This document shows, piece after piece, positions 3,042 to 42,094 of a DNA stretch of 64,000 nt. Both the position numbers and the translations under genes were made by a program. The stretch comes from Candidatus Hydrogenedentota bacterium (GTDB lineage: Bacteria > Hydrogenedentota > Hydrogenedentia > Hydrogenedentales > JAEUWI01): NCBI GenBank assembly GCA_016182605.1, contig JACPGE010000122.1, positions 1-64,000 on the forward strand, written 5' to 3'. The stretch's first letter is position 1; every line of letters begins with the position of its first letter. The notes under the pieces were generated by a model, which was given only the letters and a program-made list of their open reading frames with translations, was not told the origin of the DNA and made no database searches.

Positions 3042-5309
3042 ATGGTAGCTACTCCGGCAGGGCAGGCCTCCCTTATGGGGAAGGTCCTTGGACCCTACCA
3101 GATCGAGACCCTCATCGGGAGGGGCGCCATGGGAAGTGTGTATCTTGCCAAAGATACCGACCTGGGGCGCAAAGTCGCCCTGAAGGTGCTGCTGGGCAGT
3201 CTGGCCCGGAACCCCGATCAGATCGCGCGCTTCCAGCAGGAGGCGCGTTCGGCGGCCCCCTTGCAGCATCCCAACATCGTGGCGATTTACGATACCGGCA
3301 TTCGTCAGGGGGTGCCGTTTATTGCGATGGAGTATGTGGAGGGGGAGCCTCTGGATCGCTTCTTGCGCCGGAATGGATGCATCGACTGGCGCAACGCGCT
3401 GCACATTGCGCGGCAGGTGGCGAAAGCGCTGGATTGCGCGCACCAGGCGGGGATCGTGCACCGCGACGTGAAGCCGGCGAACATATTGATCGACAAGAAC
3501 GGGCACGTGCGTCTGACGGATTTCGGCATTGCGAAGGCCTACGAGAATCAGACGGGGCACACGGATCACGGGCAGTTGCTCGGCACGCCGAAGTACATGT
3601 CGCCCGAGCAGTGCCAGGAAGGCGCGAAGATCTCCCCCGCGAGCGATCTGTATTCGCTTGGGGTGACGCTCTTTGAAATGATCTCGGGGAAGCTGCCTTT
3701 CGAGGCCTCCTCGAATGTGGCCTTGATCAAGCGCATCACCAACGACGAGGCGCCGCGCCTGAACAAGGTGATGCGGGGCATCCCGGATGACGTGGCGCGG
3801 GTGACGGCGCATCTGATGGAACGCAATGCTTCGGCCCGGCCCGAGTCGGCGAGCGTGGTGGTCCTGGCGTTTTCGCGGCTCCTGCAGGAAAACGGGGGGA
3901 AGTCGGCATTGCCGGAGGCGCTTGATGCGTTCATTCGCGAGATGGCCGAGCCGCGCCCGCTGGGGAATGCGGCCACGCCCCTGCCGGCGAAGCGGCGCAC
4001 CCACCATGGACAGAAGCACCAGCGCGCCTACCACTATGCGCCTATCAGCGGCATGGCGCGAACAGCCGCCGCTATCTTGATCGTGTGCGCCGCGGCGGGC
4101 GGCGCGTATTGGCAACACCTGAAACCCCTCGGCCCGCAACCCGCGGCGCCCGTGCTGGAGCCGGTAGAGTTCAGCAGCCTCGAAGGGGGCGCGATTCAAG
4201 TGCCCCTGCCGCATGAGCAGTGGCGTGTGAATTCCATCCATTGGATCGGCGCGCGCAATGCCGTGGTGGTATCGGTCGCGGGCCGCGATGGCGGCATGCT
4301 GCACGGCACCCAGGGCCTGCTGGCGATTGATCTGGACACGCGCCGCGTGATCAGCCTTCAGGCGCCTGCCGGGCCCATGATCATGGCGGACTACGCACAG
4401 TATCAGCCCATGTCCGCGAGCTTGGGACTCCTCCCGCCGCTACCCGCGAAGACGCCGCTCTACGAGAGCATCGTGTGTCCCGTGTTCGATCGGGGCGGAC
4501 GCCGCGAGGGCGGCTCGATCCGGCTGGTGCCGCAGGCCTGGAATGAGGCGGTTCCGCGCGCGCAGGTGCTCCTCGAATGCGGCATTGACGCGTGGGATCC
4601 GAAGCTGCTCAATCCGTGGGCGAAACTGGGGCCGGGCGCGGCTGCGATACATCCCGAGGGCAACGCGCTGCTGGCGCTGCTCCGGGAAGACGGAAGCAAT
4701 TCGAGTCTCTTGCAGGAGTTCGGCGTGGGCGGCTGGCGCGCCACGGTGCGGAACACGTGGCGCTTTCCCGGCGAAAGCATCGCGCCTCAGAGCGTCCAGT
4801 ACACTCCCGATGGCACGCATGCGTTGTTCATGAAGATCCTGCGCAATGGCGACACCGAGCTGTGTGCCGTAAACACGCAATCGGGTGCGGAAGCGCCGCG
4901 GCCCGTTCATTCGGGGCCGCTCGATCCCGCCTATGCCGTGCACCCTTCCGGGGACCACGTTGCCGTGATGAACCGCAAGCAGCGCCAGGCAACGATTCAG
5001 TTTGCCGGCCTGGAATCCACCATGATCGCAGGTGGCGCCGTAGAGGGCGACTTCGGTCCGGAAGCGTGGCATCCTTCCGGCGATTATCTGGTCGCCCGCA
5101 TGGTGGATACGGAAACGGGACTGGACCAGCTCTACTCCGTGGGCATGGGGGGCACGGAGGCCCCGGAGCGCCTGACGCATTTCGAGACCGGTGTGCTGTG
5201 GCATGCGTCGGTCTCGCGCGATGGCGCGTGGGCGGCGACGGCGGTGGAAACGCGCTCGGGCGCGGCGGTGGTGTTCAGCCCGCTCCAGGCCGTTGGGCCA
5301 CGATCATAA
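3042..5309 (+). CDS. membrane-anchored Ser/Thr protein kinase with beta-propeller, copy 1
   Basis: Hanks-type kinase, 755 residues. The kinase domain (about 18-285) has the glycine loop GRGAMG (26-31), ATP-binding K48, catalytic HRDVKPAN (140-147), DFG (160-162) and the activation segment GTPKYMSPEQ. All catalytic residues are present. A basic linker (KRRTHHGQKHQR) precedes one transmembrane helix at about 340-357. The remaining ~390 residues are extracytoplasmic and show repeated units such as WHPSGDYLVARMV and YTPDGTHALF, typical of a TolB/PD40-like beta-propeller. The layout suggests a receptor that senses a periplasmic ligand and phosphorylates cytoplasmic Ser/Thr. It is followed after 48 bases by a paralogue, so the two are probably one transcript. 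Confidence 0.9.
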   Translation: MVATPAGQASLMGKVLGPYQIETLIGRGAMGSVYLAKDTDLGRKVALKVLLGSLARNPDQIARFQQEARSAAPLQHPNIVAIYDTGIRQGVPFIAMEYVEGEPLDRFLRRNGCIDWRNALHIARQVAKALDCAHQAGIVHRDVKPANILIDKNGHVRLTDFGIAKAYENQTGHTDHGQLLGTPKYMSPEQCQEGAKISPASDLYSLGVTLFEMISGKLPFEASSNVALIKRITNDEAPRLNKVMRGIPDDVARVTAHLMERNASARPESASVVVLAFSRLLQENGGKSALPEALDAFIREMAEPRPLGNAATPLPAKRRTHHGQKHQRAYHYAPISGMARTAAAILIVCAAAGGAYWQHLKPLGPQPAAPVLEPVEFSSLEGGAIQVPLPHEQWRVNSIHWIGARNAVVVSVAGRDGGMLHGTQGLLAIDLDTRRVISLQAPAGPMIMADYAQYQPMSASLGLLPPLPAKTPLYESIVCPVFDRGGRREGGSIRLVPQAWNEAVPRAQVLLECGIDAWDPKLLNPWAKLGPGAAAIHPEGNALLALLREDGSNSSLLQEFGVGGWRATVRNTWRFPGESIAPQSVQYTPDGTHALFMKILRNGDTELCAVNTQSGAEAPRPVHSGPLDPAYAVHPSGDHVAVMNRKQRQATIQFAGLESTMIAGGAVEGDFGPEAWHPSGDYLVARMVDTETGLDQLYSVGMGGTEAPERLTHFETGVLWHASVSRDGAWAATAVETRSGAAVVFSPLQAVGPRS

Positions 5310-5357
5310 CCGGCAAGCGCAAGCAGGGAAGCGCAACTTCAGGAGCTTTGAATTCAG

Positions 5358-7508
5358 ATGACCGCATCCCCGAACACGGCCCCGCAAACCTATATGCTGG
5401 GGAACTTTGAGATCATCGAATCGGTGGGCATCGGGGGGATGGGGATCGTGTACCGTGCGCAAGACACGGCGTTGAACCGATCGATCGCGCTCAAGATCCT
5501 GCGCGAGGATTTGCGCGCGAACGCGAGCATCGTGGCCCGCTTCCAGCGCGAGGCGGAGGCCTTTGCCACGCTCAACCATCCCAACATCGTGCGCATTTAC
5601 TCGGTGGGGAAGGTCGGGAATATCCCGTACCTGGCGATGGAGTTCATCACAGGCAAGCCCTTGAGCGAGATCCTCCAGGATCGCGGCCCGCTGCCTTGGC
5701 AAGAGGCCCTCATGATCGGGCGTCAGGTGGCGGAGGCCCTCTCCTGTGCGCACGCCTCGGGGATCATCCATCGCGACATCAAGCCGGCCAATATTATTGT
5801 GATGCGGGACGGGACGGCCAAGGTGACCGACTTTGGCATCGCGAAGGTGCTCAATTCCACGGAAGAACTGACGGTGGACGGCGCACGCCTGGGGACGCCC
5901 CAATACATGTGTCCGGAGCGCTGTCAGAATCTGAAGGTGACGCCGTCGAGCGACATTTACTCTTTGGGCGTGGTCCTGTTTCAGTTGATCAGCGGACGCC
6001 TTCCCTTTGAAGCCACCAGCTCGGTGGACCTGATCCGCCGCATCACCAGTGAGGCGCCCACGCGCTTGCGCCAGTTGGCGCCGAATGCGCCCGAGCCGGT
6101 GGAGCGCCTGCTCGCGTGCATGATGGAACGGGACTCCCGGGGCCGTCCGCAGAATGCGGGCGAGGTGAGCCGTCTGATCCAGCACGTCTTGGATGGCGGC
6201 ACCCTGGAGAACGATTCCGAGAAGCTCGCCCAGATGCTGGAGAGCTACCGGAAGTCGATCCCCACACCCGCGCCAGAGACTCGGGCACGCGAAACTTCGC
6301 GGGTGGTCCGCCTCCGCAGTGGATTCGCGGAATTCTGGTTCGGTCTGGCTCCGCTGGTGCGCATACTTATTGCCGCGGCGATCGTACTTGCCCTCTTCGG
6401 AGGGCTGGTATGGGGTGGCGTCCGCTTCATGCGCTCCGACGTGCTGCTGCCCACCCCGGCAAGCGCGGCCGCGAATGCGCGGGCCTGGCACGATGCCGCA
6501 CCCGTGGCGCGTTTTTACGATGAGACCGCGGATATTTATCTCGCGCAAATCAATCTTCCCGGATTCCGCGTCACTCAGATGGCGGAATTGAAGGGCGCCT
6601 CGGGCATATTGCTGCAACTGGATGGCGATGCGGCTTCGGCGCGATCGCAACAGCGGGCCGTGCTGGTGCTGAATCCGGAGATGCAAACGGCGTCGGTCGC
6701 CATTGCGCCGGTCGTGGCGTCGGGTGCCGCGGACTTCCGCCTGCTGGGCGCCTCCGGGAGCTTCAACGGCACGCCCGGTTATTTCATCAGCATGCCCGGC
6801 ACGACCGAGTTCTACGCGCTCGGCAACGATGCGCCGCCCGTGCAGGTGGCGGATGTGGCCGCGGCGTCGATGGCGCTCCAGACGCAGGGCGAGCGCCTGC
6901 TGCTGGCCTATACCGCGGGCGACGAGGCGCAATGGGTGCTTGCGGAGACCGCACTGAACGCATTCTACAAGAAGACCCTCCTCACGGCTTCCGGGCCGGA
7001 GATCTCCAGTCCGGCGTACAGCGCGAGTGGCCGGCACATCGCGTATCTGCGGCGCACAGGACCGGACACCCATCAACTTTATGTCATTGACACCGAAGCC
7101 CCGAAACAGGATGGCGCGGCGCTTCAGGAAGGGCGTATCAGTCTGCCGGCCAGGCCATTCAGCCCGGATGGGCAGCGCCTGCTGCTGAGCAGCAAGAACG
7201 AAACGGGCGAATCGCACATGCAGATACCGGCGGTCTCCGGAGCGGAGAGCGCGCAAATCCTGCCGGACGTTGTGGCGGCGGCGTGGCACCCGGTTCATGG
7301 GTACCTGCTCGCGGTCAAGCCGGATCGCGGGAAGCGCAACCAGCTTTACGCGATTGACCCAGCCAGCCCGGGCGCCGCAACGCAGTTGACGTATCTCAGC
7401 GCCGGCATCCAACCCTTGGTGCTTGTGACGGGCGAGGGCGCGCAGGCGATTGCCGCCCTGGCGGACGGGCCAAGCATCGCGGTGGTGCGCTTGCCCGAAA
7501 AGCCCTAA
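5358..7508 (+). CDS. membrane-anchored Ser/Thr protein kinase with beta-propeller, copy 2
   Basis: 716-residue paralogue of the preceding gene with the same layout. The kinase domain (about 15-280) has ESVGIGGMG (21-29), K46, HRDIKPAN (138-145), DFG (158-160) and GTPQYMCPERC. One transmembrane helix at about 332-354 precedes a propeller-like exterior (YSASGRHIAYLRR, FSPDGQRLLLSS). The glycine loop has an Ile where copy 1 has Arg. AGGAG lies about twelve bases before the ATG. Tandem duplication followed by divergence is the simplest origin. The different outer domains suggest the pair sense different ligands or form heteromers; this is inference. Confidence 0.9.
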   Translation: MTASPNTAPQTYMLGNFEIIESVGIGGMGIVYRAQDTALNRSIALKILREDLRANASIVARFQREAEAFATLNHPNIVRIYSVGKVGNIPYLAMEFITGKPLSEILQDRGPLPWQEALMIGRQVAEALSCAHASGIIHRDIKPANIIVMRDGTAKVTDFGIAKVLNSTEELTVDGARLGTPQYMCPERCQNLKVTPSSDIYSLGVVLFQLISGRLPFEATSSVDLIRRITSEAPTRLRQLAPNAPEPVERLLACMMERDSRGRPQNAGEVSRLIQHVLDGGTLENDSEKLAQMLESYRKSIPTPAPETRARETSRVVRLRSGFAEFWFGLAPLVRILIAAAIVLALFGGLVWGGVRFMRSDVLLPTPASAAANARAWHDAAPVARFYDETADIYLAQINLPGFRVTQMAELKGASGILLQLDGDAASARSQQRAVLVLNPEMQTASVAIAPVVASGAADFRLLGASGSFNGTPGYFISMPGTTEFYALGNDAPPVQVADVAAASMALQTQGERLLLAYTAGDEAQWVLAETALNAFYKKTLLTASGPEISSPAYSASGRHIAYLRRTGPDTHQLYVIDTEAPKQDGAALQEGRISLPARPFSPDGQRLLLSSKNETGESHMQIPAVSGAESAQILPDVVAAAWHPVHGYLLAVKPDRGKRNQLYAIDPASPGAATQLTYLSAGIQPLVLVTGEGAQAIAALADGPSIAVVRLPEKP

Positions 7509-30018: not shown

Positions 30019-30278
30019 CTCCGGGCAAAAGTGCGTACGGCAGGCGCTGCAGTTTTAAAAGCGCATGTCAACGCGTAGCCCGGAGCACGGAAACCCCATG
30101 GATTCCACGTGACGGGCATCGGCATTCTTTGCTAAATTACGAGAAAAGGCGTATTCTATATCATACGCAATCCCACCTTCTGTGACCGGTATCGCTGGAT
30201 ATACCACGCATCCACAGTCACTGGCTCGCCACGCGTGCTTTGAAGGCAAGACGCAACCCCAGGAGGAGCGTCGAGTCC

Positions 30279-33200
30279 ATGCATTCCAGGTACGGTTCAT
30301 TCGCACGCACGATGGTACGCCTCAAACACTGGCGCCCCAATTTCCGCCGGTACACGGGCGCCGCCCAAACGCCGGAGGAGCAACCGCTCCGCGCCGGTCT
30401 CTTCAGTGTGCACCAATTGGAGCAGCATGCGGCGGCGGTCGCGGGGATGCACCAGCTTGCCGGGTCGCCCGGCCCGGACAAGCTTATTGCGCGGCTTATG
30501 GAGAACGAGCGGATCCTGCTTCGCACGTACGACTTGCTCGCCCTCGCGGTAGAGCAGGACTACCAGATCACGCCGGCGGCCGAGTGGCTGCTCGACAATT
30601 TTTACGTGATCGAAGAGCAGGTCCTGATGGCGCGCCGTCACTTGCCCCGATCTTACAGCCAGGCGTTGCCGCAGTTGCTCCGGGGGCCTGCGGAAGGCAT
30701 GCCCCGGGTCTATGGCATTGCCATGGAGCTAATTTCCCATGTGGACGGCGGCGTGGACACGGTCAACCTGGATGCGTTCGTTGCATCTTACCAAGCGCAC
30801 ACACCGCTGTTGCTGGGCGAGCTTTGGGCGATCCCGATCATGCTGCGGCTGGGGCTGCTGGAGAATCTGCGGCGGGTGGCGGTACACCTGGCGACGGCCC
30901 TGAACGATCGGGACGATGCCACGCGCTGGGCGGAGAGGATGGTGCAGGTTGTGGAGGAGAATCCGAGTGATCTGGTGCTGGTGCTGGCGGATATGGCGCG
31001 GGCGAATCCCCCGTTGACGAGCACGTTTGTGGCAGAACTGATGCGGCATCTGCATGGCCAGAGCCCTCATTTTGCATTTGCCCACAGTTGGCTGGAGCAC
31101 CGCATAGCGGAGCAAGGCCTGACGAGCCTGCAGCTCATCCAGATGGAAAGCCACGCGCAGGCGGCGGATCAGATATCGATTGGCAACAGCATCACGAGCC
31201 TGCGATATCTTAGCGCGACCGATTGGCGGGACTTTGTCGAGAAGCATAGCGTGGTCGAGCAGATCCTGTGGCGCGAACCGGCAGGCATCTATGCGGACAT
31301 GAGTTTTGCGACGCGCAACAGCTACCGGAGCGTGATTGAATCGATAGCGCGGCACGGCGACCTGTCCGAAGCCGCGGTGGCCCGGCAGGCGATACGCCTC
31401 ACGGTGGCAGCGGCTTCCACGCAACCTGAAAGCCGCGAAGCCCATGTAGGGTATTACCTGGTGGACAAGGGCCGCGAAGAACTGGAGCGTATTTCGCGGG
31501 TTCGCAGCACACCGGTATTGTTCGCGCGCAAAATGATCAACCAACATCCAATGTACTTCTATGCCGCGGCCATTCTGGCCATTACGATGTGTATTTCAGG
31601 CGGTCTGCTGACCTGGGCGCAGCGTGGCGGGGTGCCGCCGTGGATGGTATTGCTGCTCACGGCGCCGGTGCTGATGTGCGCCCTTCATGTGTCCATCGGC
31701 GCCGTAAACTGGCTGAGCACGACGCTGATCGCGCCACGGCCGCTGCCCCGCATGGACTTTCGCAACGGCATTCCGCGGGAGCACCGGACGATGGTGGTGG
31801 TTCCGACGATGCTTGGCGACGCACAAACGGTTCGCGATTTGCTGGATCGGTTGGAAATACATTATGCCGCGAACCGTGATCCCCATCTGCATTTTGCACT
31901 GCTGACCGATCTGCGGGATGCGCCGCAGGAAGTCATGCCGGAGGATGAAGCGCAGATTCAGCAGGTCCGTGAAGGGATAGAGTCACTCAACCGGAAGTAC
32001 CTCCATGATCGCGCGGACATTTTCTTTCTGTTTCACCGTCCCCGCCGTTGGAACGCTGTCGACGGCGTGTGGATGGGGCATGAGCGCAAGCGCGGCAAGC
32101 TGGAAGACTTCAATGGCCTGTTGCGGGGCGAATCCACGGACGCCTTCTCCGAAACTGTGGGGGAGTTGAGCCTGCTTCCGCAGATCAAGTATGTGATTAC
32201 GCTGGACACCGACACCCAGCTTCCGCGGGATGCTGCGCGGGATCTGACCGGGGCCATGGCGCATCCCCTCAACCGTCCGGTGCTGGATGCGACAGGCCGG
32301 CGGGTGGTAGAAGGGCACGGGATTTTACAGCCGCGCGTGGCGACGAATCTGCCGACGGCATCCCGCTCCTGGTTTGTACGGCTCTTTGCCTCAGACACGG
32401 GCCTCGATCCGTATACGCGCGTGGTCTCCGATGTATATCAGGATCTCTTTGGCGAGGGGTCATTCATTGGCAAGGGGATCTACGATGTCGACGCCTTTCG
32501 CGAGACGTGCATGCATTTCCCCGGCAACACCATTCTCAGCCACGATTTGCTCGAAGGGGTGCATGCGCGTTCCGGTCTGTTGACCGATGTGGAACTCTAT
32601 GAAGACCACCCTTCCCGGTACTCGGTGGACGCGAGCCGGCGTCACCGCTGGGTCCGCGGAGACTGGCAGATCGCCGGGTGGCTACTGCCACGGGTACCCG
32701 GGCGGGACGGAACCCGGCGCAGCAATCCGCTTTCGTCACTTTCATGGTGGAAGATCTGCGACAACCTCCGGCGCAGCCTGGTGCCGCCGGCCATGGTTTC
32801 TCTTCTGTTGTTTGCGTGGCTGTTGCCCTGGGGGCCGTTGGCTGCCGGGGTGACGATTTTTGTCCTGCTCGTGGTGGCCGCGATTCCGCTCTTGTCGGTG
32901 ACGGCGGAGGTTGGCCGCAAGCCGCCCGATCTGACGTGGGGCCTGCACCTGCGCGCATTCGGACCCGCGTTGGCGCGCCGCCTCGGGCAGTTTCTGTTTA
33001 CGCTGACCTTTCTGCCGCACGAGGCCTATCTCAATCTGGACGCGATCGTCCGGACGCTTGCCCGAATGGGCTGGACGCGCCGCAAGCTGCTTGAATGGAC
33101 CACATCGAGCGATGCGGAACGCAAGATGGGCAACGACTTCAAGAGCTACGCCCGATCCATGCGCGTTGCGCCCCTGCTGGCCGCGGCGGGCATGGGCGTC

Positions 33201-36200
33201 ATCGCGATAGCGCAGCCCACGAATCTGTTGCCCGGTGCGCCGCTGCTTGGGCTGTGGCTGATCTCCCCCATTGCCGCGTGGTACCTGAGCCGGACGATAG
33301 TATCGCCACCGCCGCACCTGAGCGCGGAGCAGCATCTTTTTTTGAAGAAACTCGCGCGCAAGACCTGGCGCTATTTCGAGGTTTTTGTGACGGAAGACGA
33401 GAATTGGCTGCCGCCCGACAACTTCCAGGAGCGGCCTGCTCCGAAGGTGGCCTCCCGAACGAGCCCAACCAATATTGGTGTGGCGCTCCTGTCGAACTTG
33501 TCCGCGTATGATTTCGGATACGGATCCGCGGCCCAGTTGTTGAAGCGCAGCGAGGACACGCTGGCGAGCCTGGGCAGGCTGGAGCGCCATCGCGGCCACT
33601 TTTACAACTGGTACAACACGCAGACTCTGGAGCCCCTGTTGCCCCTCTACGTATCCACGGTGGATAGCGGGAATCTCGCGCTGCATCTGATCATATTGCA
33701 GCGTGGCCTCTTGAATCTGATCGACGAGAGGGTAATTCCGGAGCGGCTGTTTGAGGGCCTGCAAGATACGGCCCGCGTGCTCTCGGATGCTGCAAGCGCC
33801 GCGATCGCCTCGCCCAGTCTTGGACAGCTTACGCCCCAGTTGATCGCGATTTTTGAGAAGTCCGATGCGCTGGCGGCCCTGCTGGATGATGCGCCGCGGC
33901 AGGCCCGTGCGGTGGCGCGCCTGCTGGAGCGGGTCACAGCGTGCGCCGAGGAGCTGGCATCGATCGATTGCAGAGAGAACGAGAGCAGTTGGTGGTCACA
34001 CGCGCTGCAACGGGGCGCGGCCAGTCACGGGCACGATCTCGCCCACCTCGCCCCGTGGGCCATGCTGCCCGCGCCCCCGGAGCGCATCTGGAACAGCGAA
34101 TCGCCCGGCATTCAAGCGCGGCTCGACGAACTGCGGGATCTGCTGGAGCAACTTGACGCGGTGCCCTCGCTTCGCGGGCTTGCCGGGCTTGAAGAACGGC
34201 TGTTGCGGGCGATTGACGCTGCACTTGGGGCGCCGGGAGCAGCGCCTTCAACGGTACCCAGGGAGCACGCTGCGTGGCTTGCCGATCTGCGCACGGCGGT
34301 GGTGATCGCTGCCAGGCACGCGGGACAGCGCATTCTCGATCTGGAGGCCGCTGCGAAGCATTGTGAAGATTTTGCCACCATGGATTTCGCGTTTCTCTGC
34401 GAAGAAGATCGCGACTTGATGTCCATTGGATACAACATCAGCGACAACCGCCTTGACAGCGGATGCTATGATCTGCTCGCTTCTGAGGCCCGGGTTGCGA
34501 GCTATCTTGCGATTGCGCAGGGACAGGTGGGACAGGAGCATTGGTTCGCGCTGAGGCGCATGCTGACGACTTCCACAGGCTTGCCCGCGCTGCTGAGCTG
34601 GAACGGATCCATGTTCGAGTATTTGATGCCGCTGCTTGTGATGCCGACGTATGAAAACACACTTCTGGACAAGACCTACCGGGCCGTGGTGCAGCGGCAG
34701 ATCGATTACGGCAAACAGCTCGGCCTGCCCTGGGGCATTTCCGAGTCGGGGTACAACACGCAGGATGTCCACCTCAACTATCAGTACCGTGGCTTTGGCG
34801 TGCCTGGCCTGGGGCTGAAACGGGGTTTGGTGGAAGATCGTGTTGTAGCTCCCTACGCGACGATGCTGGCGCTGATGGTGGCGCCGGAGGCGGCCTGCCG
34901 TAATCTGGAGCGCCTGTCTACGGAGGGCCGGGAAGGGGCTTATGGTCTCTATGAGGCGATTGATTACACGCCATCGCGTCAGCCGCGCAACGCCGACGGG
35001 GTCACAATCTGGTCGTACATGGCGCATCACCAGGGGATGAGTCTGCTTTCATTGGCGTATCTCTTGCACGGCAAGCCGATGCAAAGGCGCTTCGAATCCG
35101 ACCCCACGTTGCGGGCGACCGAACTGTTGCTTCAAGAGCGCATACCACGGCGAACCGCGCCCATATTCCCCCATGCGATTGAGGTCGGCGCATCGCGCGT
35201 GGCGCAGGGTGCGGCGGACGAGCCGATGCGTATCCTTACGGACCCCAGTGTGGGCGCACCGGAGGTGCATCTTTTGTCGAACGGCCGCTACCACGTGATG
35301 GTGTCGAGCGCGGGTGGCGGCTACAGCAAGTGGCACGATCTTGCGGTCACGCGGTGGCGCGAAGACCCGACCCGGGACCATTGGGGGGCCTTCTGTTACT
35401 TGCGCGATCTGGATACGGGGCGATTCTGGTCGGTGGGATACCAGCCAACGCTCAAGTTATCGGAGCCTTATGAGGCGGTCTTTGTGCAGGCAAAGGCCGA
35501 GTTCCGCCGGCGGGACGACCGCATCGAGCTGCATACGGAGATCAGCGTCTCTCCGGAGGACGACATTGAGCTGCGGCGGACCACGATCACCAACCGCTCC
35601 GATCGTCCGCGCAGCATCGAGGTGACCAGTTACGCGGAGGTCGTGCTCGCTCCTGCTGGACAAGACCTCACGCATCCGTCATTCAGCAACCTGTTTGTGC
35701 AGACTGAGCTGTTACGCAATCAGGATGCGATCCTTTGCACGCGGCGCCCGCGATCGGCTACGGAAAAACCGCCGTGGCTGGCCCATCTGATGAACGTTCA
35801 AGGAGATGTCACGGGCAAGATTTCCTTTGAGACCAGCCGCCAGAATTTCATTGGCCGGGGCCGGAGCCTGGATCACCCGGCAGCGATGGACGGGTATGGG
35901 CGCCTCTCGGATACGGAAGGGTCTGTGCTTGATCCGGTGGTGGCGATACGGCGCACAATCCGGCTGCAGCCGCACGAAACCGCACGGGTGGACATCGTCA
36001 CCGGTGTCGCCGACACCCGGGATGCAGTGGCCGGGCTTGCGGAGAAGTACCACGATCCGAGGCTTTCCGATCGCGTTTTCGAACTGGCCTGGACGCACAG
36101 TCAGGTCGAACTCCGGCACATCAATGCGACGGAGACCGACGCGCAACTCTATTTGCGCCTGGCCGGGGCGCTGATCTATGCGAGCGCGCTGCGCCGCGCG

Positions 36201-39086
36201 GGCGCGGAGATCTTGTCGCGGAACCGCAGTGCTCAAAGCGGGTTGTGGGGCCACGGTATTTCGGGCGATCTGCCGATCGTGCTCATCCGCATCCGCGACC
36301 ATGACAAGCTCGATCTGGTTCGCCAGGTCTTTCAGGCGCATGCCTATTGGCGATTGAAGGGTCTGATCGTGGATCTCGTCATCTGGAATGAAGACGAATC
36401 GGTCTATCGCCAGGATCTCTTCGACACCATCATGGACCTTATCGCGGCGAGCCCGGAGGCGGGCTTCGTGGACAAGCCGGGGGGCGTCTACCTGCGGCGC
36501 GGGGAACACATACCGGAAGTGGATCGGGTCCTGTTGCAGGCGGCGGCCCGGATCGTGCTGGCGGACGATGCGGGGACCCTGCGCGAACAGGTGGAGCTGC
36601 GCCGCCGGCCGGAAGCGGCCGTTCCGCCGCTCAAACCCGTGCGGCGCCTCACCGAGCCCCTCGCGGCCCGGGAGAGCCCCAAACCGGACCTGGCGCACTT
36701 TAATGGACTCGGGGGCTTCACGCACGATGGCAAGGAGTACATTACGCATCTGCGTCCCGGCCTGAACACACCGGCGCCGTGGGTCAATGTGATTGCGAAC
36801 CCGCACTTTGGCACGCTGGTATCGGAGAGCGGCAGCGTGTACACGTGGTCGGAGAACTGTCACGAGTTTCGCATCACACCCTGGAGCAACGATCCCGTCA
36901 GCAATGTGAGCGGCGAAGCCGTGTACCTCCGGGATGAGGAGACCGGACGCGTCTGGTCGCCCACGCCGCAGCCTGCGCGCGGTTCCAAGACCTATTCCGC
37001 GCGCCATGGCTTCGGGTACAGCGTGTTCGAGTATGAAGACGATGGGCTGGCAAGCGTGATGACGGTGTATGTATCGCTCAACGATCCGGTGAAGTTTGTC
37101 CGGCTCCGTGTGGCGAACCGATCGGGGCGTCCGCGCAAGTTAAGCGCGACGGCCTATTGGGAACTCGTGCTGGGCGAGTTGCGTTGCCGGACGCTCATGC
37201 ATGTGGTGACTCGGCTGGATGCGCAGACCGGCGCGATTTTTGCGCACAACGCGTACAGCACGGAGTTTGGCGGGCGTGTCGCGTTTTTCGATACGAGCGA
37301 GTTGATGCATACCGTCACGGGAGATCGCAGTGAGTTCCTTGGCCGGAATGGAATGAGCGCCGATCCGGCCGCGCTGCGCCGAACCCGGCTCTCGGGGCGC
37401 ACTGGGGCCGGCTTCGATCCTTGCGCGGCGATTCAGACGCCGTTTCAGTTGCAGGACGGAGAGGAGAAGGAAGTCGTCTTTGTGATGGGTGCGGCGCAGT
37501 CGGAGGAGGAGGCCCAAGTCATCGTTCAGCGGACGCACGGCGTGGCGCAGGCACAACAGGCGCTAGAGGAGGTCTGGCGGTACTGGGGGCATACGCTGGG
37601 GGCGCTTTTCGTGGAGACGCCCGACACGGCCTTGAACTTCCTGGTGAATGGCTGGCTCCCCTACCAGACGATAGCGTGCCGCCTCTGGGGACGCACGGGA
37701 TTTTATCAGTCGGGGGGCGCATTCGGCTTCCGGGATCAGTTGCAGGACAGCATGGCGCTGGTGCATGCCGCGCCGGATCTTGTCCGGCAGCACCTGTTGC
37801 GCGCGACGGCGCGTCAGTTCCTGGAAGGCGATGTGCAGCATTGGTGGCACGCGCATTCGGGCCGCGGCGTGCGCACGCACTTCTCAGACGATTACCTGTG
37901 GCTGCCCTATACCGTGTGCCGCTACGTGCATGCCACGGGCGACACCGGGGTGCTCGACGAGAAGGTTCCCTACCTCGACGCCCGTACTGTGCGTCCCGAG
38001 GAAGAAGGGTATTACGATCTACCCCTGATTTCGGGCGAGATGGGCACTGTTTACGAACATTGCGAGCGCGCCATCAAGAACGGACTGCGCTTTGGGGATC
38101 ATGGGCTGCCACTCATGGGCTGCGGCGATTGGAACGATGGCATGAATCTCGTGGGCAAGGATGGAAAGGGCGAGAGCGTCTGGCTCGCGTTTTTCCTGTA
38201 TGACGTGTTGACACGCTTTGCAGACCTCGCGCGGCAACACGGTGAGACGGCCTTTGCCGGAACGTGCGAGACCGAGGCCAAGGAACTGCGCCTGCGCATC
38301 GACGCCGGGGCTTGGGATGGAGAGTGGTACCGCCGCGCCTATTTTGACGATGGCGGGCCGCTGGGATCGGCGGAGAATGTGGAGTGTCAGATCGATTCGA
38401 TTGCGCAGAGCTGGTCGGTCCTTTCAGGGGCTGGGGAGCCGGGGCGTGCGCGGCAGGCGATGGAGAGCGTGAACCAGCGGCTGGTGCGCCGCAATGCGCG
38501 GCTGGTGCAGCTCTTCGATCCGCCTTTCGACACGTCCGAACTCGATCCGGGCTATATAAAGGGATACACGCCGGGGGTGCGTGAGAACGGCGGTCAATAC
38601 ACGCACGCCGCGATCTGGGTTGCCATGGCGTTTGCCGCGTTGAAGGATCCGATCCGTGCCTGGGAAATGTTCGCCTTGCTCAATCCGGTGAACCATGCGA
38701 ACACACCGGCGAATACCCAGGTTTATCGAGTCGAACCGTATGTCGTCGCAGCGGATGTGTACAGCGCCACGCCCCACACCGGCCGGGGCGGCTGGACGTG
38801 GTACACGGGATCGTCGTCGTGGATGTACCGGCTCATTACAGAGTCGCTGCTCGGTCTGCACCTGGAAACCGGCCGGTTGATCTTCACGCCGTGCCTTCCT
38901 GCCGATTGGCCCTCCTTCAAGGTGCATTACCGGTACCGCGAGACCTGCTATCACATTACGGTGCGCAATGGCGGCGGCGGGAACACGGTGAATCAGGTGC
39001 GTATAGACGGGAGTGTGCACACGGAGATGACGCTGCCGCTGGTCGACGATCACATAGATCACGAAGTGGAGATCATGCTCGACTGA
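30279..39086 (+). CDS. ndvB: cyclic beta-1,2-glucan synthase-like protein (GT84 + GH94)
   Basis: 2935 residues from the ATG after AGGAGG (a TTG 13 codons earlier is possible); known NdvB/Cgs proteins are about 2800-2900. In order: N-terminal helical region, TM helices near 420-490, the GT84 domain with LDTDTQLPRDAA (about 641) and RHRWVRGDWQ (about 787), TM helices near 830-870 and 960-1010, a glucoamylase-like segment to about 1590 (ASRTSPTNIG, YMAHHQGMS), then two GH94-type beta-sandwich modules (about 1660 and 2180) and a GH94 catalytic barrel with MGCGDWNDGMN (about 2612). In rhizobia and Brucella the enzyme makes cyclic glucans from UDP-glucose and trims them by phosphorolysis. No NdvA exporter lies next to it. 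Confidence 0.9.
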   Translation: MHSRYGSFARTMVRLKHWRPNFRRYTGAAQTPEEQPLRAGLFSVHQLEQHAAAVAGMHQLAGSPGPDKLIARLMENERILLRTYDLLALAVEQDYQITPAAEWLLDNFYVIEEQVLMARRHLPRSYSQALPQLLRGPAEGMPRVYGIAMELISHVDGGVDTVNLDAFVASYQAHTPLLLGELWAIPIMLRLGLLENLRRVAVHLATALNDRDDATRWAERMVQVVEENPSDLVLVLADMARANPPLTSTFVAELMRHLHGQSPHFAFAHSWLEHRIAEQGLTSLQLIQMESHAQAADQISIGNSITSLRYLSATDWRDFVEKHSVVEQILWREPAGIYADMSFATRNSYRSVIESIARHGDLSEAAVARQAIRLTVAAASTQPESREAHVGYYLVDKGREELERISRVRSTPVLFARKMINQHPMYFYAAAILAITMCISGGLLTWAQRGGVPPWMVLLLTAPVLMCALHVSIGAVNWLSTTLIAPRPLPRMDFRNGIPREHRTMVVVPTMLGDAQTVRDLLDRLEIHYAANRDPHLHFALLTDLRDAPQEVMPEDEAQIQQVREGIESLNRKYLHDRADIFFLFHRPRRWNAVDGVWMGHERKRGKLEDFNGLLRGESTDAFSETVGELSLLPQIKYVITLDTDTQLPRDAARDLTGAMAHPLNRPVLDATGRRVVEGHGILQPRVATNLPTASRSWFVRLFASDTGLDPYTRVVSDVYQDLFGEGSFIGKGIYDVDAFRETCMHFPGNTILSHDLLEGVHARSGLLTDVELYEDHPSRYSVDASRRHRWVRGDWQIAGWLLPRVPGRDGTRRSNPLSSLSWWKICDNLRRSLVPPAMVSLLLFAWLLPWGPLAAGVTIFVLLVVAAIPLLSVTAEVGRKPPDLTWGLHLRAFGPALARRLGQFLFTLTFLPHEAYLNLDAIVRTLARMGWTRRKLLEWTTSSDAERKMGNDFKSYARSMRVAPLLAAAGMGVIAIAQPTNLLPGAPLLGLWLISPIAAWYLSRTIVSPPPHLSAEQHLFLKKLARKTWRYFEVFVTEDENWLPPDNFQERPAPKVASRTSPTNIGVALLSNLSAYDFGYGSAAQLLKRSEDTLASLGRLERHRGHFYNWYNTQTLEPLLPLYVSTVDSGNLALHLIILQRGLLNLIDERVIPERLFEGLQDTARVLSDAASAAIASPSLGQLTPQLIAIFEKSDALAALLDDAPRQARAVARLLERVTACAEELASIDCRENESSWWSHALQRGAASHGHDLAHLAPWAMLPAPPERIWNSESPGIQARLDELRDLLEQLDAVPSLRGLAGLEERLLRAIDAALGAPGAAPSTVPREHAAWLADLRTAVVIAARHAGQRILDLEAAAKHCEDFATMDFAFLCEEDRDLMSIGYNISDNRLDSGCYDLLASEARVASYLAIAQGQVGQEHWFALRRMLTTSTGLPALLSWNGSMFEYLMPLLVMPTYENTLLDKTYRAVVQRQIDYGKQLGLPWGISESGYNTQDVHLNYQYRGFGVPGLGLKRGLVEDRVVAPYATMLALMVAPEAACRNLERLSTEGREGAYGLYEAIDYTPSRQPRNADGVTIWSYMAHHQGMSLLSLAYLLHGKPMQRRFESDPTLRATELLLQERIPRRTAPIFPHAIEVGASRVAQGAADEPMRILTDPSVGAPEVHLLSNGRYHVMVSSAGGGYSKWHDLAVTRWREDPTRDHWGAFCYLRDLDTGRFWSVGYQPTLKLSEPYEAVFVQAKAEFRRRDDRIELHTEISVSPEDDIELRRTTITNRSDRPRSIEVTSYAEVVLAPAGQDLTHPSFSNLFVQTELLRNQDAILCTRRPRSATEKPPWLAHLMNVQGDVTGKISFETSRQNFIGRGRSLDHPAAMDGYGRLSDTEGSVLDPVVAIRRTIRLQPHETARVDIVTGVADTRDAVAGLAEKYHDPRLSDRVFELAWTHSQVELRHINATETDAQLYLRLAGALIYASALRRAGAEILSRNRSAQSGLWGHGISGDLPIVLIRIRDHDKLDLVRQVFQAHAYWRLKGLIVDLVIWNEDESVYRQDLFDTIMDLIAASPEAGFVDKPGGVYLRRGEHIPEVDRVLLQAAARIVLADDAGTLREQVELRRRPEAAVPPLKPVRRLTEPLAARESPKPDLAHFNGLGGFTHDGKEYITHLRPGLNTPAPWVNVIANPHFGTLVSESGSVYTWSENCHEFRITPWSNDPVSNVSGEAVYLRDEETGRVWSPTPQPARGSKTYSARHGFGYSVFEYEDDGLASVMTVYVSLNDPVKFVRLRVANRSGRPRKLSATAYWELVLGELRCRTLMHVVTRLDAQTGAIFAHNAYSTEFGGRVAFFDTSELMHTVTGDRSEFLGRNGMSADPAALRRTRLSGRTGAGFDPCAAIQTPFQLQDGEEKEVVFVMGAAQSEEEAQVIVQRTHGVAQAQQALEEVWRYWGHTLGALFVETPDTALNFLVNGWLPYQTIACRLWGRTGFYQSGGAFGFRDQLQDSMALVHAAPDLVRQHLLRATARQFLEGDVQHWWHAHSGRGVRTHFSDDYLWLPYTVCRYVHATGDTGVLDEKVPYLDARTVRPEEEGYYDLPLISGEMGTVYEHCERAIKNGLRFGDHGLPLMGCGDWNDGMNLVGKDGKGESVWLAFFLYDVLTRFADLARQHGETAFAGTCETEAKELRLRIDAGAWDGEWYRRAYFDDGGPLGSAENVECQIDSIAQSWSVLSGAGEPGRARQAMESVNQRLVRRNARLVQLFDPPFDTSELDPGYIKGYTPGVRENGGQYTHAAIWVAMAFAALKDPIRAWEMFALLNPVNHANTPANTQVYRVEPYVVAADVYSATPHTGRGGWTWYTGSSSWMYRLITESLLGLHLETGRLIFTPCLPADWPSFKVHYRYRETCYHITVRNGGGGNTVNQVRIDGSVHTEMTLPLVDDHIDHEVEIMLD

Positions 39087-39137: not shown

Positions 39138-40094
39138 TCAGCGTTGGGCCGCGGCGTGCACGAGATAGGCTGCGAGTGGTCCGGCCACGTCGCAGCCGGT
39201 CTTCTCCTCGAAGACGGCAAACATGGGCGAGGGATTGCATTCGAGGAGACATACGCGCCCGGCTGCGCCGCGAATGAGATCGACACCGCTGAAGGGCATC
39301 TGGCAGGTGCGCGCGGCGTGCAGGGCAATCTCCCGCTCTTCAGTCGAGAGCGCCGTGGCACGGACCTCGCCCTCGGCCAGCCGGTAATCGATTTCCGTGG
39401 AGGCGATGCTGGCCGCGGCGACGGCTTTGGCATCGACCACGAAGACCCGCAGCGCCAGCCCCGGCACATATTCTTCAAAGAGCACGGGCGCGTTCCGCAA
39501 AAGTTCCAGGCGCTCTGGCGCTTTGTCTTTGGCTTCGAGCAATCGCACTGCCGCGCCGCCTGCCAGTGGCTTGTAGACGACGTCTCCCACTGCATCGAAG
39601 AATGTCCGGGCGCTGTCTGGATCGTTGGTGGCGATCCAGCGTGGCGTGGGCAGTCCGGCACGGCCCAGCACGGACAACTGCCACGGCTTGCGCCCATGGA
39701 TCGCATTCGCTGCGATGGTGTTGACCATGCGGCAGCCGGTGTCTTCCAGATAGAGCAATACCGGCTCCAGGAGGGCGCGTTTTTCTTCGCACTGCGCCAC
39801 GAGTCCCCTCGGGCGGGCGAGGAGTTCGTCGTGAAAGGACGAGCTCAAGGGGCTCGTTTTCAGTCCGCGCACATAGGCTGCCGCGGGAGGCGCATCGAGC
39901 GGTACGGAGAACCGGGGCCCGCGCGCATCGAAGCTCAGGCTTTCTGTTTGGGGGAAACTGGTCGCGTCCCAAACAGCGAACGGCGCGTCCACCGCTGCCA
40001 GGCAGGCGCCGACCCGCTGTATCTGCGGATCGGCGCCGGAGCCCAACAATACGATGGGATTCGGGGACACGGTTAACTGCCGCCCTTGAAGCAT
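39138..40094 (-). CDS. ATP-grasp graspetide ligase (PsnB-like macrocyclase)
   Basis: 318 residues, the size of graspetide ligases such as PsnB and MdnC. N-terminal domain with SFPQTESLSFD; ATP-grasp core with VVYKPLAGG (K175), FEEYVPG (207-213), DYR at 236-238 (the DxR motif that graspetide ligases use to bind the acidic side chain), and a metal-binding end LLECNPSPMF (E285, N287). It would activate Glu carboxylates of the precursor with ATP and join them to Thr hydroxyls. Its ATG lies inside the 3' end of the precursor gene (22-base overlap); a GTG eight codons later, just after the precursor stop, is an alternative. RimK-like or other peptide ligation cannot be excluded from this gene alone; the adjacent peptide decides it. 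Confidence 0.82.
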   Translation of the reverse strand: MLQGRQLTVSPNPIVLLGSGADPQIQRVGACLAAVDAPFAVWDATSFPQTESLSFDARGPRFSVPLDAPPAAAYVRGLKTSPLSSSFHDELLARPRGLVAQCEEKRALLEPVLLYLEDTGCRMVNTIAANAIHGRKPWQLSVLGRAGLPTPRWIATNDPDSARTFFDAVGDVVYKPLAGGAAVRLLEAKDKAPERLELLRNAPVLFEEYVPGLALRVFVVDAKAVAAASIASTEIDYRLAEGEVRATALSTEEREIALHAARTCQMPFSGVDLIRGAAGRVCLLECNPSPMFAVFEEKTGCDVAGPLAAYLVHAAAQR

Positions 40095-40246
40095 TCCTCA
40101 CCGAGCGCCTGGGTGGTGACGTCACCGTTGCCCGATTCTTCCCCGATGACCAGCGTGGTGGCTTCGCCGAGTTTCGCCAGTTGGGGGGCGTGCTCCAGGT
40201 CTTCGATGAAGAGCCGGGGCTTTGTAATGAGACGGGGTTTTTTCAT
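40073..40246 (-). CDS. graspetide precursor peptide, plesiocin-type, two TTxxxxEE motifs
   Basis: 57 residues, AGGAG eight bases before the ATG. The leader begins MKKPRLITKP and contains RLFIEDLE (11-18), the kind of LFIEDL motif that plesiocin-class ligases bind. The core has two repeats fourteen residues apart: TTLVIGEE (30-37) and TTQALGEE (44-51), both exact TTxxxxEE with Gly before EE, joined by SGNGDV and ending CFKGGS. In plesiocin two Thr of each motif form esters with two Glu, making hairpin-like bicycles, so four esters are expected here. A cysteine follows the second motif. It overlaps the ATP-grasp ligase gene. I see no protease, transporter or second precursor next to it. Confidence 0.85.
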   Translation of the reverse strand: MKKPRLITKPRLFIEDLEHAPQLAKLGEATTLVIGEESGNGDVTTQALGEECFKGGS

Positions 40247-40652: not shown

Positions 40653-42026
40653 TTATTCCAGGCCGTATTTTTTGATTTTGTATTGGAGGGTGGTGCGTTT
40701 GAGTCCGAGGTGATCGGCGGCTTTGGTCTTGTTCCAGCGGAAGCGATCGAGCGCGCCCTGGATCAGGGCACTCTCCAGGCGGTCCTTGCGATCCTGGAGG
40801 CTGTCACCCAGATCAGCCTCTTGATCCTTGTCCATGGTGTTTTCACTGAGGATCAGTTCGGGCGGCAATTCCGCGCGCGTCACGGACTCGCCTTCAGTGA
40901 GCACGACGGCGCGTTCAATGACGTTTTCCAATTCCCGCACATTGCCGGGCCACGCGTAGTTCATCAGAATGCCGATGACGTCGTCGTCGACTTCGAGGAC
41001 TTCCTTCCCCATTTCCAGACTGAACTTGCGCAGGAAGTGATCCACGAGCAGGGGGATATCGTCGCGGCGCTCGCGCAATGCGGGCACATAGAGCGAGAAG
41101 ACATTCAGACGGTAGTAGAAGTCTTCGCGGAAATCCCCCGCTTCGATGGCTTCTTTGAGGTCGCGGTTGGTCGCCGCGATAATCCGCACATCGACAGGGA
41201 TGACTTCGGTGCCGCCGACGCGTTCGATTTCGCTTTCCTGCAACACGCGCAGCAGCTTGACCTGGGTGCCGGGTTCGATCTCGCCCACCTCATCGAGGAA
41301 GAGGGTGCCGCCGTGCGCCCTTTCGAAGCGGCCGAGCTTGCGCTTGTCGGCGCCGGTGAAGGCGCCTTTTTCGTGGCCGAAGAGTTCGCTCTCCAGCACG
41401 GTGGGCGCGAGCGCGGCGCAGTTCACCGCGACGAAGGGGCCGTCGCGCCGCGTGCTGGCTTCATGCATGGCGCGCGCCACCAACTCCTTCCCCACGCCGC
41501 TCGGGCCGGTGATCATGACGGAACTTTTGGTCTTGGCGATTTTTGTGATCAATTTCAATAACTGGCGCGTCGCCTCGCTGGCGCCGACGAAATGCTGGAC
41601 GGACGGGTGGATCCAGGTTTGGATCTGCTGGCCCTCCAGACGGCGGCGGCGCGTTCGCAGGAGCTTCTCCAGACGCCGTTCCATCTCGGCGACCTGGAAG
41701 GGTTTGGTGATGAAGTCTGCGGCACCGAGGCGCATGGCCTCGACGGCGGTTTCGATGGTGCCGAAAGCGGTGATGACAATCACCTCGCAATCGGAGAGGG
41801 TCGCCTTGGCGGCGCGGAGCACGGCCAGGCCATTTTCCCCGGGCAGATTCAGGTCGGTAATGACGGCGGAGAAGCGGTGTTTCTGGATCTGGATGATGGC
41901 CTCTTCGGCCGAATCCGCGGTAACGACCTCCAGCCCCAAGTCCACGAAAGCAGACTCAAGTAAGTGGCGCATGCTGGGTTTGTCGTCGACAACCAGGATG
42001 CGATCTGTTTCGGGCTGAACTTCCAC
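40653..42026 (-). CDS. NtrC-family sigma54-dependent response regulator
   Basis: 457 residues from the GTG that has GAGAG six bases upstream; a GTG 16 codons earlier lacks one. Receiver with VVDDKPS, ITDLNLPGENG (acceptor Asp), VITAFGT and TKPFQVAEM; AAA+ domain with GPSGVGKE (Walker A), GAFTGA (sigma54 contact loop), GTLFLDEVGEIE (Walker B) and a C-terminal Fis-type HTH (WNKTKAADHLGLKRTTLQYKIKK). It activates sigma54 promoters when phosphorylated. No histidine kinase partner is adjacent; the nearest is the sensor at 22.5 kb. Confidence 0.95.
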   Translation of the reverse strand: MEVQPETDRILVVDDKPSMRHLLESAFVDLGLEVVTADSAEEAIIQIQKHRFSAVITDLNLPGENGLAVLRAAKATLSDCEVIVITAFGTIETAVEAMRLGAADFITKPFQVAEMERRLEKLLRTRRRRLEGQQIQTWIHPSVQHFVGASEATRQLLKLITKIAKTKSSVMITGPSGVGKELVARAMHEASTRRDGPFVAVNCAALAPTVLESELFGHEKGAFTGADKRKLGRFERAHGGTLFLDEVGEIEPGTQVKLLRVLQESEIERVGGTEVIPVDVRIIAATNRDLKEAIEAGDFREDFYYRLNVFSLYVPALRERRDDIPLLVDHFLRKFSLEMGKEVLEVDDDVIGILMNYAWPGNVRELENVIERAVVLTEGESVTRAELPPELILSENTMDKDQEADLGDSLQDRKDRLESALIQGALDRFRWNKTKAADHLGLKRTTLQYKIKKYGLE

Positions 42027-42064
42027 AACTATCTCTCTTTGCCGCAAGGGGATAACGCGAAGCA

Positions 42065-42094
42065 ACTGTACCACGGGATCAAAAAACCAATCAA
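42065..42094 (-). promoter_or_regulatory. possible promoter of the NtrC-type regulator
   Basis: TTGATT (42094-42089), 18-base spacer, TACAGT (42070-42065) on the minus strand, about 40 bases before the GTG start. AT-rich context. Confidence 0.35.

What the first reader, a model, noticed from the sequence alone, without database searches (positions are those of the whole stretch)
39138..40246. Plesiocin-type graspetide (omega-ester RiPP) locus with a two-repeat precursor
A 57-residue gene that is easy to miss carries the LFIEDL leader motif and two exact TTxxxxEE core motifs (TTLVIGEE, TTQALGEE). Its gene overlaps an ATP-grasp ligase of the right size with the DYR motif and the LLECNPSPMF metal site. 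In plesiocin (Plesiocystis, PsnA2/PsnB) each TTxxxxEE gives two Thr-Glu esters; here two motifs predict four. The Cys after the second motif and the Gly before each EE are unusual details. Finding this class in a PVC/Hydrogenedentota-like genome, beside a glucan synthase, appears not to be well described; I cannot search to confirm that.
Basis: partly seen in the sequence, partly recalled or inferred. Interest (0 to 1): 0.92.

Follow-up and report, generated by a model that had tools for sequence, protein, structure and literature searches.

The report
Plesiocin-type graspetide genes in Hydrogenedentota
A bacterium of the uncultured phylum Hydrogenedentota carries a tiny two-gene kit, a short peptide plus one cross-linking enzyme, of the same kind as the known protease-inhibiting peptide plesiocin; the kind is known, but its home phylum and the separation of the two genes in some relatives look new.

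Summary
A 57-aa ORF (40246..40073, minus strand) with an AGGAG ribosome site carries LFIEDL and two exact TTxxxxEE motifs, the only two in the window's six frames. Next to it is a 318-aa ATP-grasp ligase whose closest solved relative is PsnB, the plesiocin macrocyclase (E=1.7e-52; RimK 2.5e-16). The PDB copy of the plesiocin precursor, LFIEDLGKVTGGKGGPYTTLAIGEE, matches the family profile, so this is a plesiocin-type (group 2) graspetide pair.

Among 68 Hydrogenedentota genomes, exactly the same 15 hold ligase and precursor. In 12 the genes are adjacent with unrelated flanks; in three the precursor lies on another contig. Both TT and EE pairs are invariant in 11 aligned precursors; one unlinked precursor has a degenerate first repeat.

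Predicted product: two hairpins, four Thr-Glu esters (-72 Da), probably a protease inhibitor. Chemistry and function are untested. New member of a known kind; no held paper links graspetides with this phylum.

The parts
40073..40246 (-). graspetide precursor peptide gene, 57 aa, ATG with AGGAG upstream
   Evidence: family profile E=2.1e-25 in own genome, single copy
40196..40213 (-). leader motif LFIEDL (residues 12-17), identical to the one in PsnA2
40136..40159 (-). core repeat 1, TTLVIGEE; predicted nested esters T30-E37 and T31-E36
   Evidence: connectivity inferred from plesiocin (PMC13097080, PMC12291112)
40094..40117 (-). core repeat 2, TTQALGEE; predicted nested esters T44-E51 and T45-E50
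   Evidence: connectivity inferred from plesiocin
39138..40094 (-). PsnB-like ATP-grasp graspetide synthetase, 318 aa from ATG (a GTG start at 40070 is equally or more likely)
39381..39389 (-). DYR (residues 236-238 of the ATG version), invariant in the Hydrogenedentota/Halocatena ligases; DFR in PsnB and RimK
39219..39242 (-). ECNPSPMF metal/ATP site (residues 285-292)

Best explanation
This is a minimal two-gene plesiocin-type (group 2) graspetide cassette in a Hydrogenedentota genome. The LFIEDL leader docks on the ATP-grasp ligase. The ligase uses ATP to phosphorylate the Glu side chains of each TTxxxxEE core, and the Thr hydroxyls attack them. The product has two hairpins, each closed by two nested omega-esters (four esters, -72 Da). 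By analogy with plesiocin it is a serine protease inhibitor whose target is set by the residues in the hairpin loop (LVIG, QALG). Shown here: the gene pair, its homology to PsnB/PsnA2, strict co-occurrence and invariance of the cross-linking residues. Inferred: docking, esterification, connectivity. Least certain: the inhibitor function, leader removal and export.
For: Ligase to PsnB E=1.7e-52, next RimK 2.5e-16; family profile to PsnB E=1.5e-82, next best 5e-23. AlphaFold model (pLDDT 86.8, pTM 0.86): the 15 best PDB matches are all PsnB chains, best TM 0.87 at 36% identity, then AMdnB, PruB, MdnC, RimK. The precursor profile finds only PsnA2 (LFIEDL...TTLAIGEE) in the PDB (E=0.0037). The same 15 of 68 phylum genomes hold ligase and precursor (exact probability 2e-15, genomes taken as independent). 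Among 386 genomes the precursor profile finds those 15 and three weak hits at E 0.003-0.01. T,T,E,E of both repeats invariant in 11 aligned precursors while linkers vary.
Against: No chemistry can be shown here. No transporter or leader protease is conserved beside the pair, whereas group 2 clusters often have an NHLM-type transporter (PMC13097080). In three genomes the genes are on different contigs. One precursor (G024) has a degenerate first repeat, VTEALGEF. The genomes are related, so the co-occurrence probability overstates independence.
Confidence: 0.93

Rival explanations
1. The ligase is a RimK-type glutamate ligase or other general ATP-grasp enzyme and the neighbouring small ORF is a chance reading frame or unrelated peptide.
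For: Pfam assigns the RimK domain, the best NCBIfam score is rimK_fam although below its cut-off, and DxR is shared with RimK.
Against: PsnB beats RimK by about 120 bits for the single protein and 200 bits for the family. The precursor is conserved and co-occurs perfectly with the ligase, also when unlinked.
Confidence: 0.02
2. It is a graspetide, but a variant in which some linkages differ from plesiocin, for example fewer than four esters, or Cys side chains forming disulfides or thioesters.
For: Cys follows EE in 6 of 27 motifs and further Cys occur in linkers; loops vary, e.g. AAKC in two genomes. Some graspetide synthetases can form thioesters (PMC13097080, non-native).
Against: The eight Thr/Glu residues are invariant while the Cys are not.
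Confidence: 0.05

Closest known systems
Plesiocin system PsnA2/PsnB (group 2 graspetide, Plesiocystis pacifica; PDB 7DRM-7DRP)
   Same: LFIEDL leader; TTxxxxEE cores, of which TTLAIGEE is identical to the commonest core in the Hydrogenedentota family; a single PsnB-type ATP-grasp ligase with the same fold.
   Different: Two repeats instead of four; ligase 36% identical in the structural alignment; no transporter seen beside the pair; in three genomes precursor and ligase are unlinked.
Microviridin and related synthetases (MdnB/MdnC, AMdnB, CdnC)
   Same: Graspetide synthetase fold and chemistry.
   Different: About 20% identity in structural alignment; microviridin leaders carry PFFARFL (PMC8939145), not LFIEDL.
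RimK ribosomal protein S6 glutamate ligase
   Same: ATP-grasp core, DxR motif, metal-binding Asn.
   Different: Much lower similarity, and it does not come with a core-repeat peptide.

Membership tests
Group 2 (plesiocin-type) graspetide | Precursor with TTxxxxEE core repeats | tested here: met
   Two exact repeats; invariant T,T,E,E in 11 aligned precursors
Group 2 (plesiocin-type) graspetide | LFIEDL-type leader as in PsnA2 | tested here: met
   LFIEDL identical to PsnA2 14-38 in the PDB
Group 2 (plesiocin-type) graspetide | Single ATP-grasp ligase closest to PsnB rather than to MdnB/C, CdnC or RimK | tested here: met
Group 2 (plesiocin-type) graspetide | Two Thr-Glu omega-esters per repeat, nested (hairpin) | not testable with these tools
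   Needs co-expression and mass spectrometry
Group 2 (plesiocin-type) graspetide | NHLM-type transporter often beside the cluster (frequent companion, not a defining requirement; PMC13097080) | tested here: not met
   No gene other than the pair recurs widely across 15 loci; no transporter domain among the six window genes scanned; the only C39 peptidase domain in the genome is on another contig
Group 2 (plesiocin-type) graspetide | Serine protease inhibition | not testable with these tools
   Needs purified product
RimK-type glutamate ligase | Score above the NCBIfam rimK_fam cut-off and RimK as closest relative | tested here: not met
   98 bits against a cut-off of 143; PsnB closer

The most novel reading that the evidence does not exclude
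The Hydrogenedentota graspetides are made by a ligase that finds its precursor in trans from a distant locus in some lineages, with no dedicated protease or exporter. The leader-bearing, doubly hairpinned peptide may then be the final product, acting inside the cell as a protease inhibitor and not as an exported natural product.
Probability: 0.2. Interest if true: 0.6.

Novelty: new member of a known kind. Interest (0 to 1): 0.4.

Why it matters
It adds a phylum, largely known from metagenomes, to the range of plesiocin-type graspetides and supplies about 14 distinct natural precursors for one enzyme family. The invariant Thr/Glu residues, variable linkers and variable hairpin loops (LAIG, MAVG, AAKC, QALG) are a natural mutational scan of what the macrocyclase tolerates. 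The perfect co-occurrence with three unlinked cases shows that searching only next to the ligase, as standard RiPP mining does, can miss precursors. A haloarchaeal relative with a single TTMAMGEE core suggests the type crosses domains.

Tried and rejected
RimK/glutathione synthetase identity: rejected. Link with the glucan synthase: rejected, since it is convergent and not recurrent. Control by the neighbouring sigma-54 activator: no -24/-12 match upstream of the precursor, and hits in the window are no more frequent than chance. C39 peptidase as dedicated leader protease: only a weak excess in graspetide genomes (9/15 against 16/53, p=0.07), none adjacent. Programmed frameshift between precursor and ligase was considered because several ligases lack an ATG/GTG/TTG start; an NTGA-type 4-nt overlap with a CTG (or ATA) start is the simpler reading. 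Ligase trees were poorly resolved: they put the Hydrogenedentota ligases with the Halocatena one, but the placement of long branches is unsure and is not used as evidence. phmmer of the window peptide alone found nothing in the PDB; the family profile did. A key subscription paper on graspetide mining was not held.

Full report
WHAT IS THERE. On the minus strand, an ATG at 40246 with AGGAG about 10 nt upstream opens a 57-aa ORF, MKKPRLITKPRLFIEDLEHAPQLAKLGEATTLVIGEESGNGDVTTQALGEECFKGGS. It is followed by a 318-aa ATP-grasp ORF (40094..39138). The motif TT....EE occurs only twice in the six-frame translation of the 64-kb window, both times here, and shuffling the peptide gives two copies in 2.6e-5 of trials. 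The ligase may start at the ATG inside the precursor (22-nt overlap) or at a GTG at 40070, 2 nt after the precursor stop. The GTG start gives a protein N-terminus of the length seen in relatives and PsnB, and the ten extra N-terminal residues of the ATG version are predicted with low confidence.

THE LIGASE. Its closest solved relative is PsnB, the plesiocin macrocyclase, at E=1.7e-52; RimK follows at 2.5e-16. A profile of 16 relatives gives PsnB E=1.5e-82, the next structure 5e-23. The AlphaFold model (pLDDT 86.8, pTM 0.86) matches 15 PsnB chains first (best TM 0.87, 36% identity), then AMdnB, PruB, MdnC, CdnC, RimK. Pfam sees only a RimK-like ATP-grasp domain, and the protein stays below the NCBIfam cut-offs for both rimK_fam and the TIGR04187 peptide maturase.

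THE PRECURSOR. The PDB holds the PsnA2 14-38 peptide, LFIEDLGKVTGGKGGPYTTLAIGEE, and it is the only PDB sequence the family profile finds (E=0.0037). The window's leader motif is identical to it, and the commonest core in the family, TTLAIGEE, is identical to plesiocin's core in that peptide. Gly before EE is therefore the rule (24 of 27 motifs) and not an oddity. Cys after EE occurs in 6 of 27 motifs.

CONSERVATION. Fifteen of 68 genomes of the phylum, the window's own included, hold the ligase (the other 14 are 45-53% identical), and exactly the same fifteen hold the precursor. The probability of this match by chance is 2e-15 if genomes are taken as independent, which they are not fully. In a search of 386 genomes with the precursor profile the other three hits are weak, E 0.003-0.01. 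In 11 aligned precursors the two TT and two EE pairs are invariant, along with L, I, L-E of the leader, while linker length and sequence vary.

ARRANGEMENT. In 12 of 15 genomes the precursor lies directly upstream of the ligase. Flanking genes differ from locus to locus; nothing but the pair recurs widely. In the window the 2,948-aa GH94-type glucan synthase runs the other way and ends 51 bp from the ligase's end, so it is convergent and incidental. In three genomes (G024, G039, G065) the precursor sits well inside another contig, yet the G+C content around the two genes agrees. The two genes therefore appear unlinked there, although draft assemblies leave some doubt. One of these, G024, has a degenerate first repeat (VTEALGEF).

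HOW IT PROBABLY WORKS. By homology, the leader docks on the ligase, Glu carboxylates are phosphorylated and attacked by Thr hydroxyls (general graspetide mechanism, PMC13097080). For plesiocin, two lactones per repeat were seen by MS/MS (PMC9484694), and plesiocin is a potent serine protease inhibitor whose strength rises with the number of cyclised motifs (PMC13097080). The window peptide should thus gain four esters in two hairpins. Function, leader removal and export are inferred or unknown: no protease or transporter recurs beside the pair, and the single C39 peptidase domain of the genome is on another contig.

NOVELTY. The type is known. No paper in the held library mentions graspetides together with Hydrogenedentota, but the 2026 RODEO survey lists 21,584 predicted graspetides, including many from candidate phyla (PMC13097080), and its supplement could not be read here; these loci may be in it. 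What seems new is the Hydrogenedentota set of two-repeat precursors, the unlinked pairs, and a plasmid-borne haloarchaeal relative (Halocatena salina, ligase 42% identical) with an unannotated single-core peptide MTEDVHFIEELEERENATPIGVTTMAMGEEVGDLSLPLI.

Noticed in passing
L047:1501-1665, L048:1501-1653, L049:1501-1686: Precursors on a different contig from the only ligase of the same genome (G065, G039, G024), all away from contig ends; G024's first repeat is degenerate (VTEALGEF).
   Followed up: partly
L052:5807-5923 (Halocatena salina plasmid NZ_CP096022.1): Unannotated haloarchaeal peptide with HFIEELE leader and a single TTMAMGEE core, upstream of a PsnB-like ligase and an M50-like protease gene; end coordinate from the open frame, start inferred from its first in-frame Met before the leader.
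   Followed up: partly
L053:2955-4933 and 5303-6352 (Halorussus salilacus plasmid): Two tandem PsnB-like ATP-grasp genes near an M50 metallopeptidase; no TTxxxxEE peptide seen beside them.
   Followed up: partly
L050:1498-3634: In a different, small phylum (G195, G331) a PsnB-like ligase lies next to a repeat protein with about seven GPIMKxRADxPLPGQ-like units and an oxygenase-like gene; possibly a different graspetide type.
   Followed up: no
L005, L009, L012, L013 (ligase starts): Ligases without ATG/GTG/TTG start near the expected N-terminus; a CTG overlapping the precursor's TGA stop (CTGA), or ATA overlapping TAG in L009, fits translational coupling with a rare start codon.
   Followed up: partly
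L015 and L017 (precursors): First core loop is AAKC in two genomes of one genus instead of LAIG-like, which might change protease specificity.
   Followed up: no
30240-39086: Very large (2,948 aa) GH94/NdvB-type cyclic glucan synthase, convergent with the graspetide pair.
   Followed up: partly
40653-42074: NtrC-type sigma-54 response regulator upstream of the precursor in the same direction, 406 bp away; no sigma-54 promoter match found before the precursor.
   Followed up: partly
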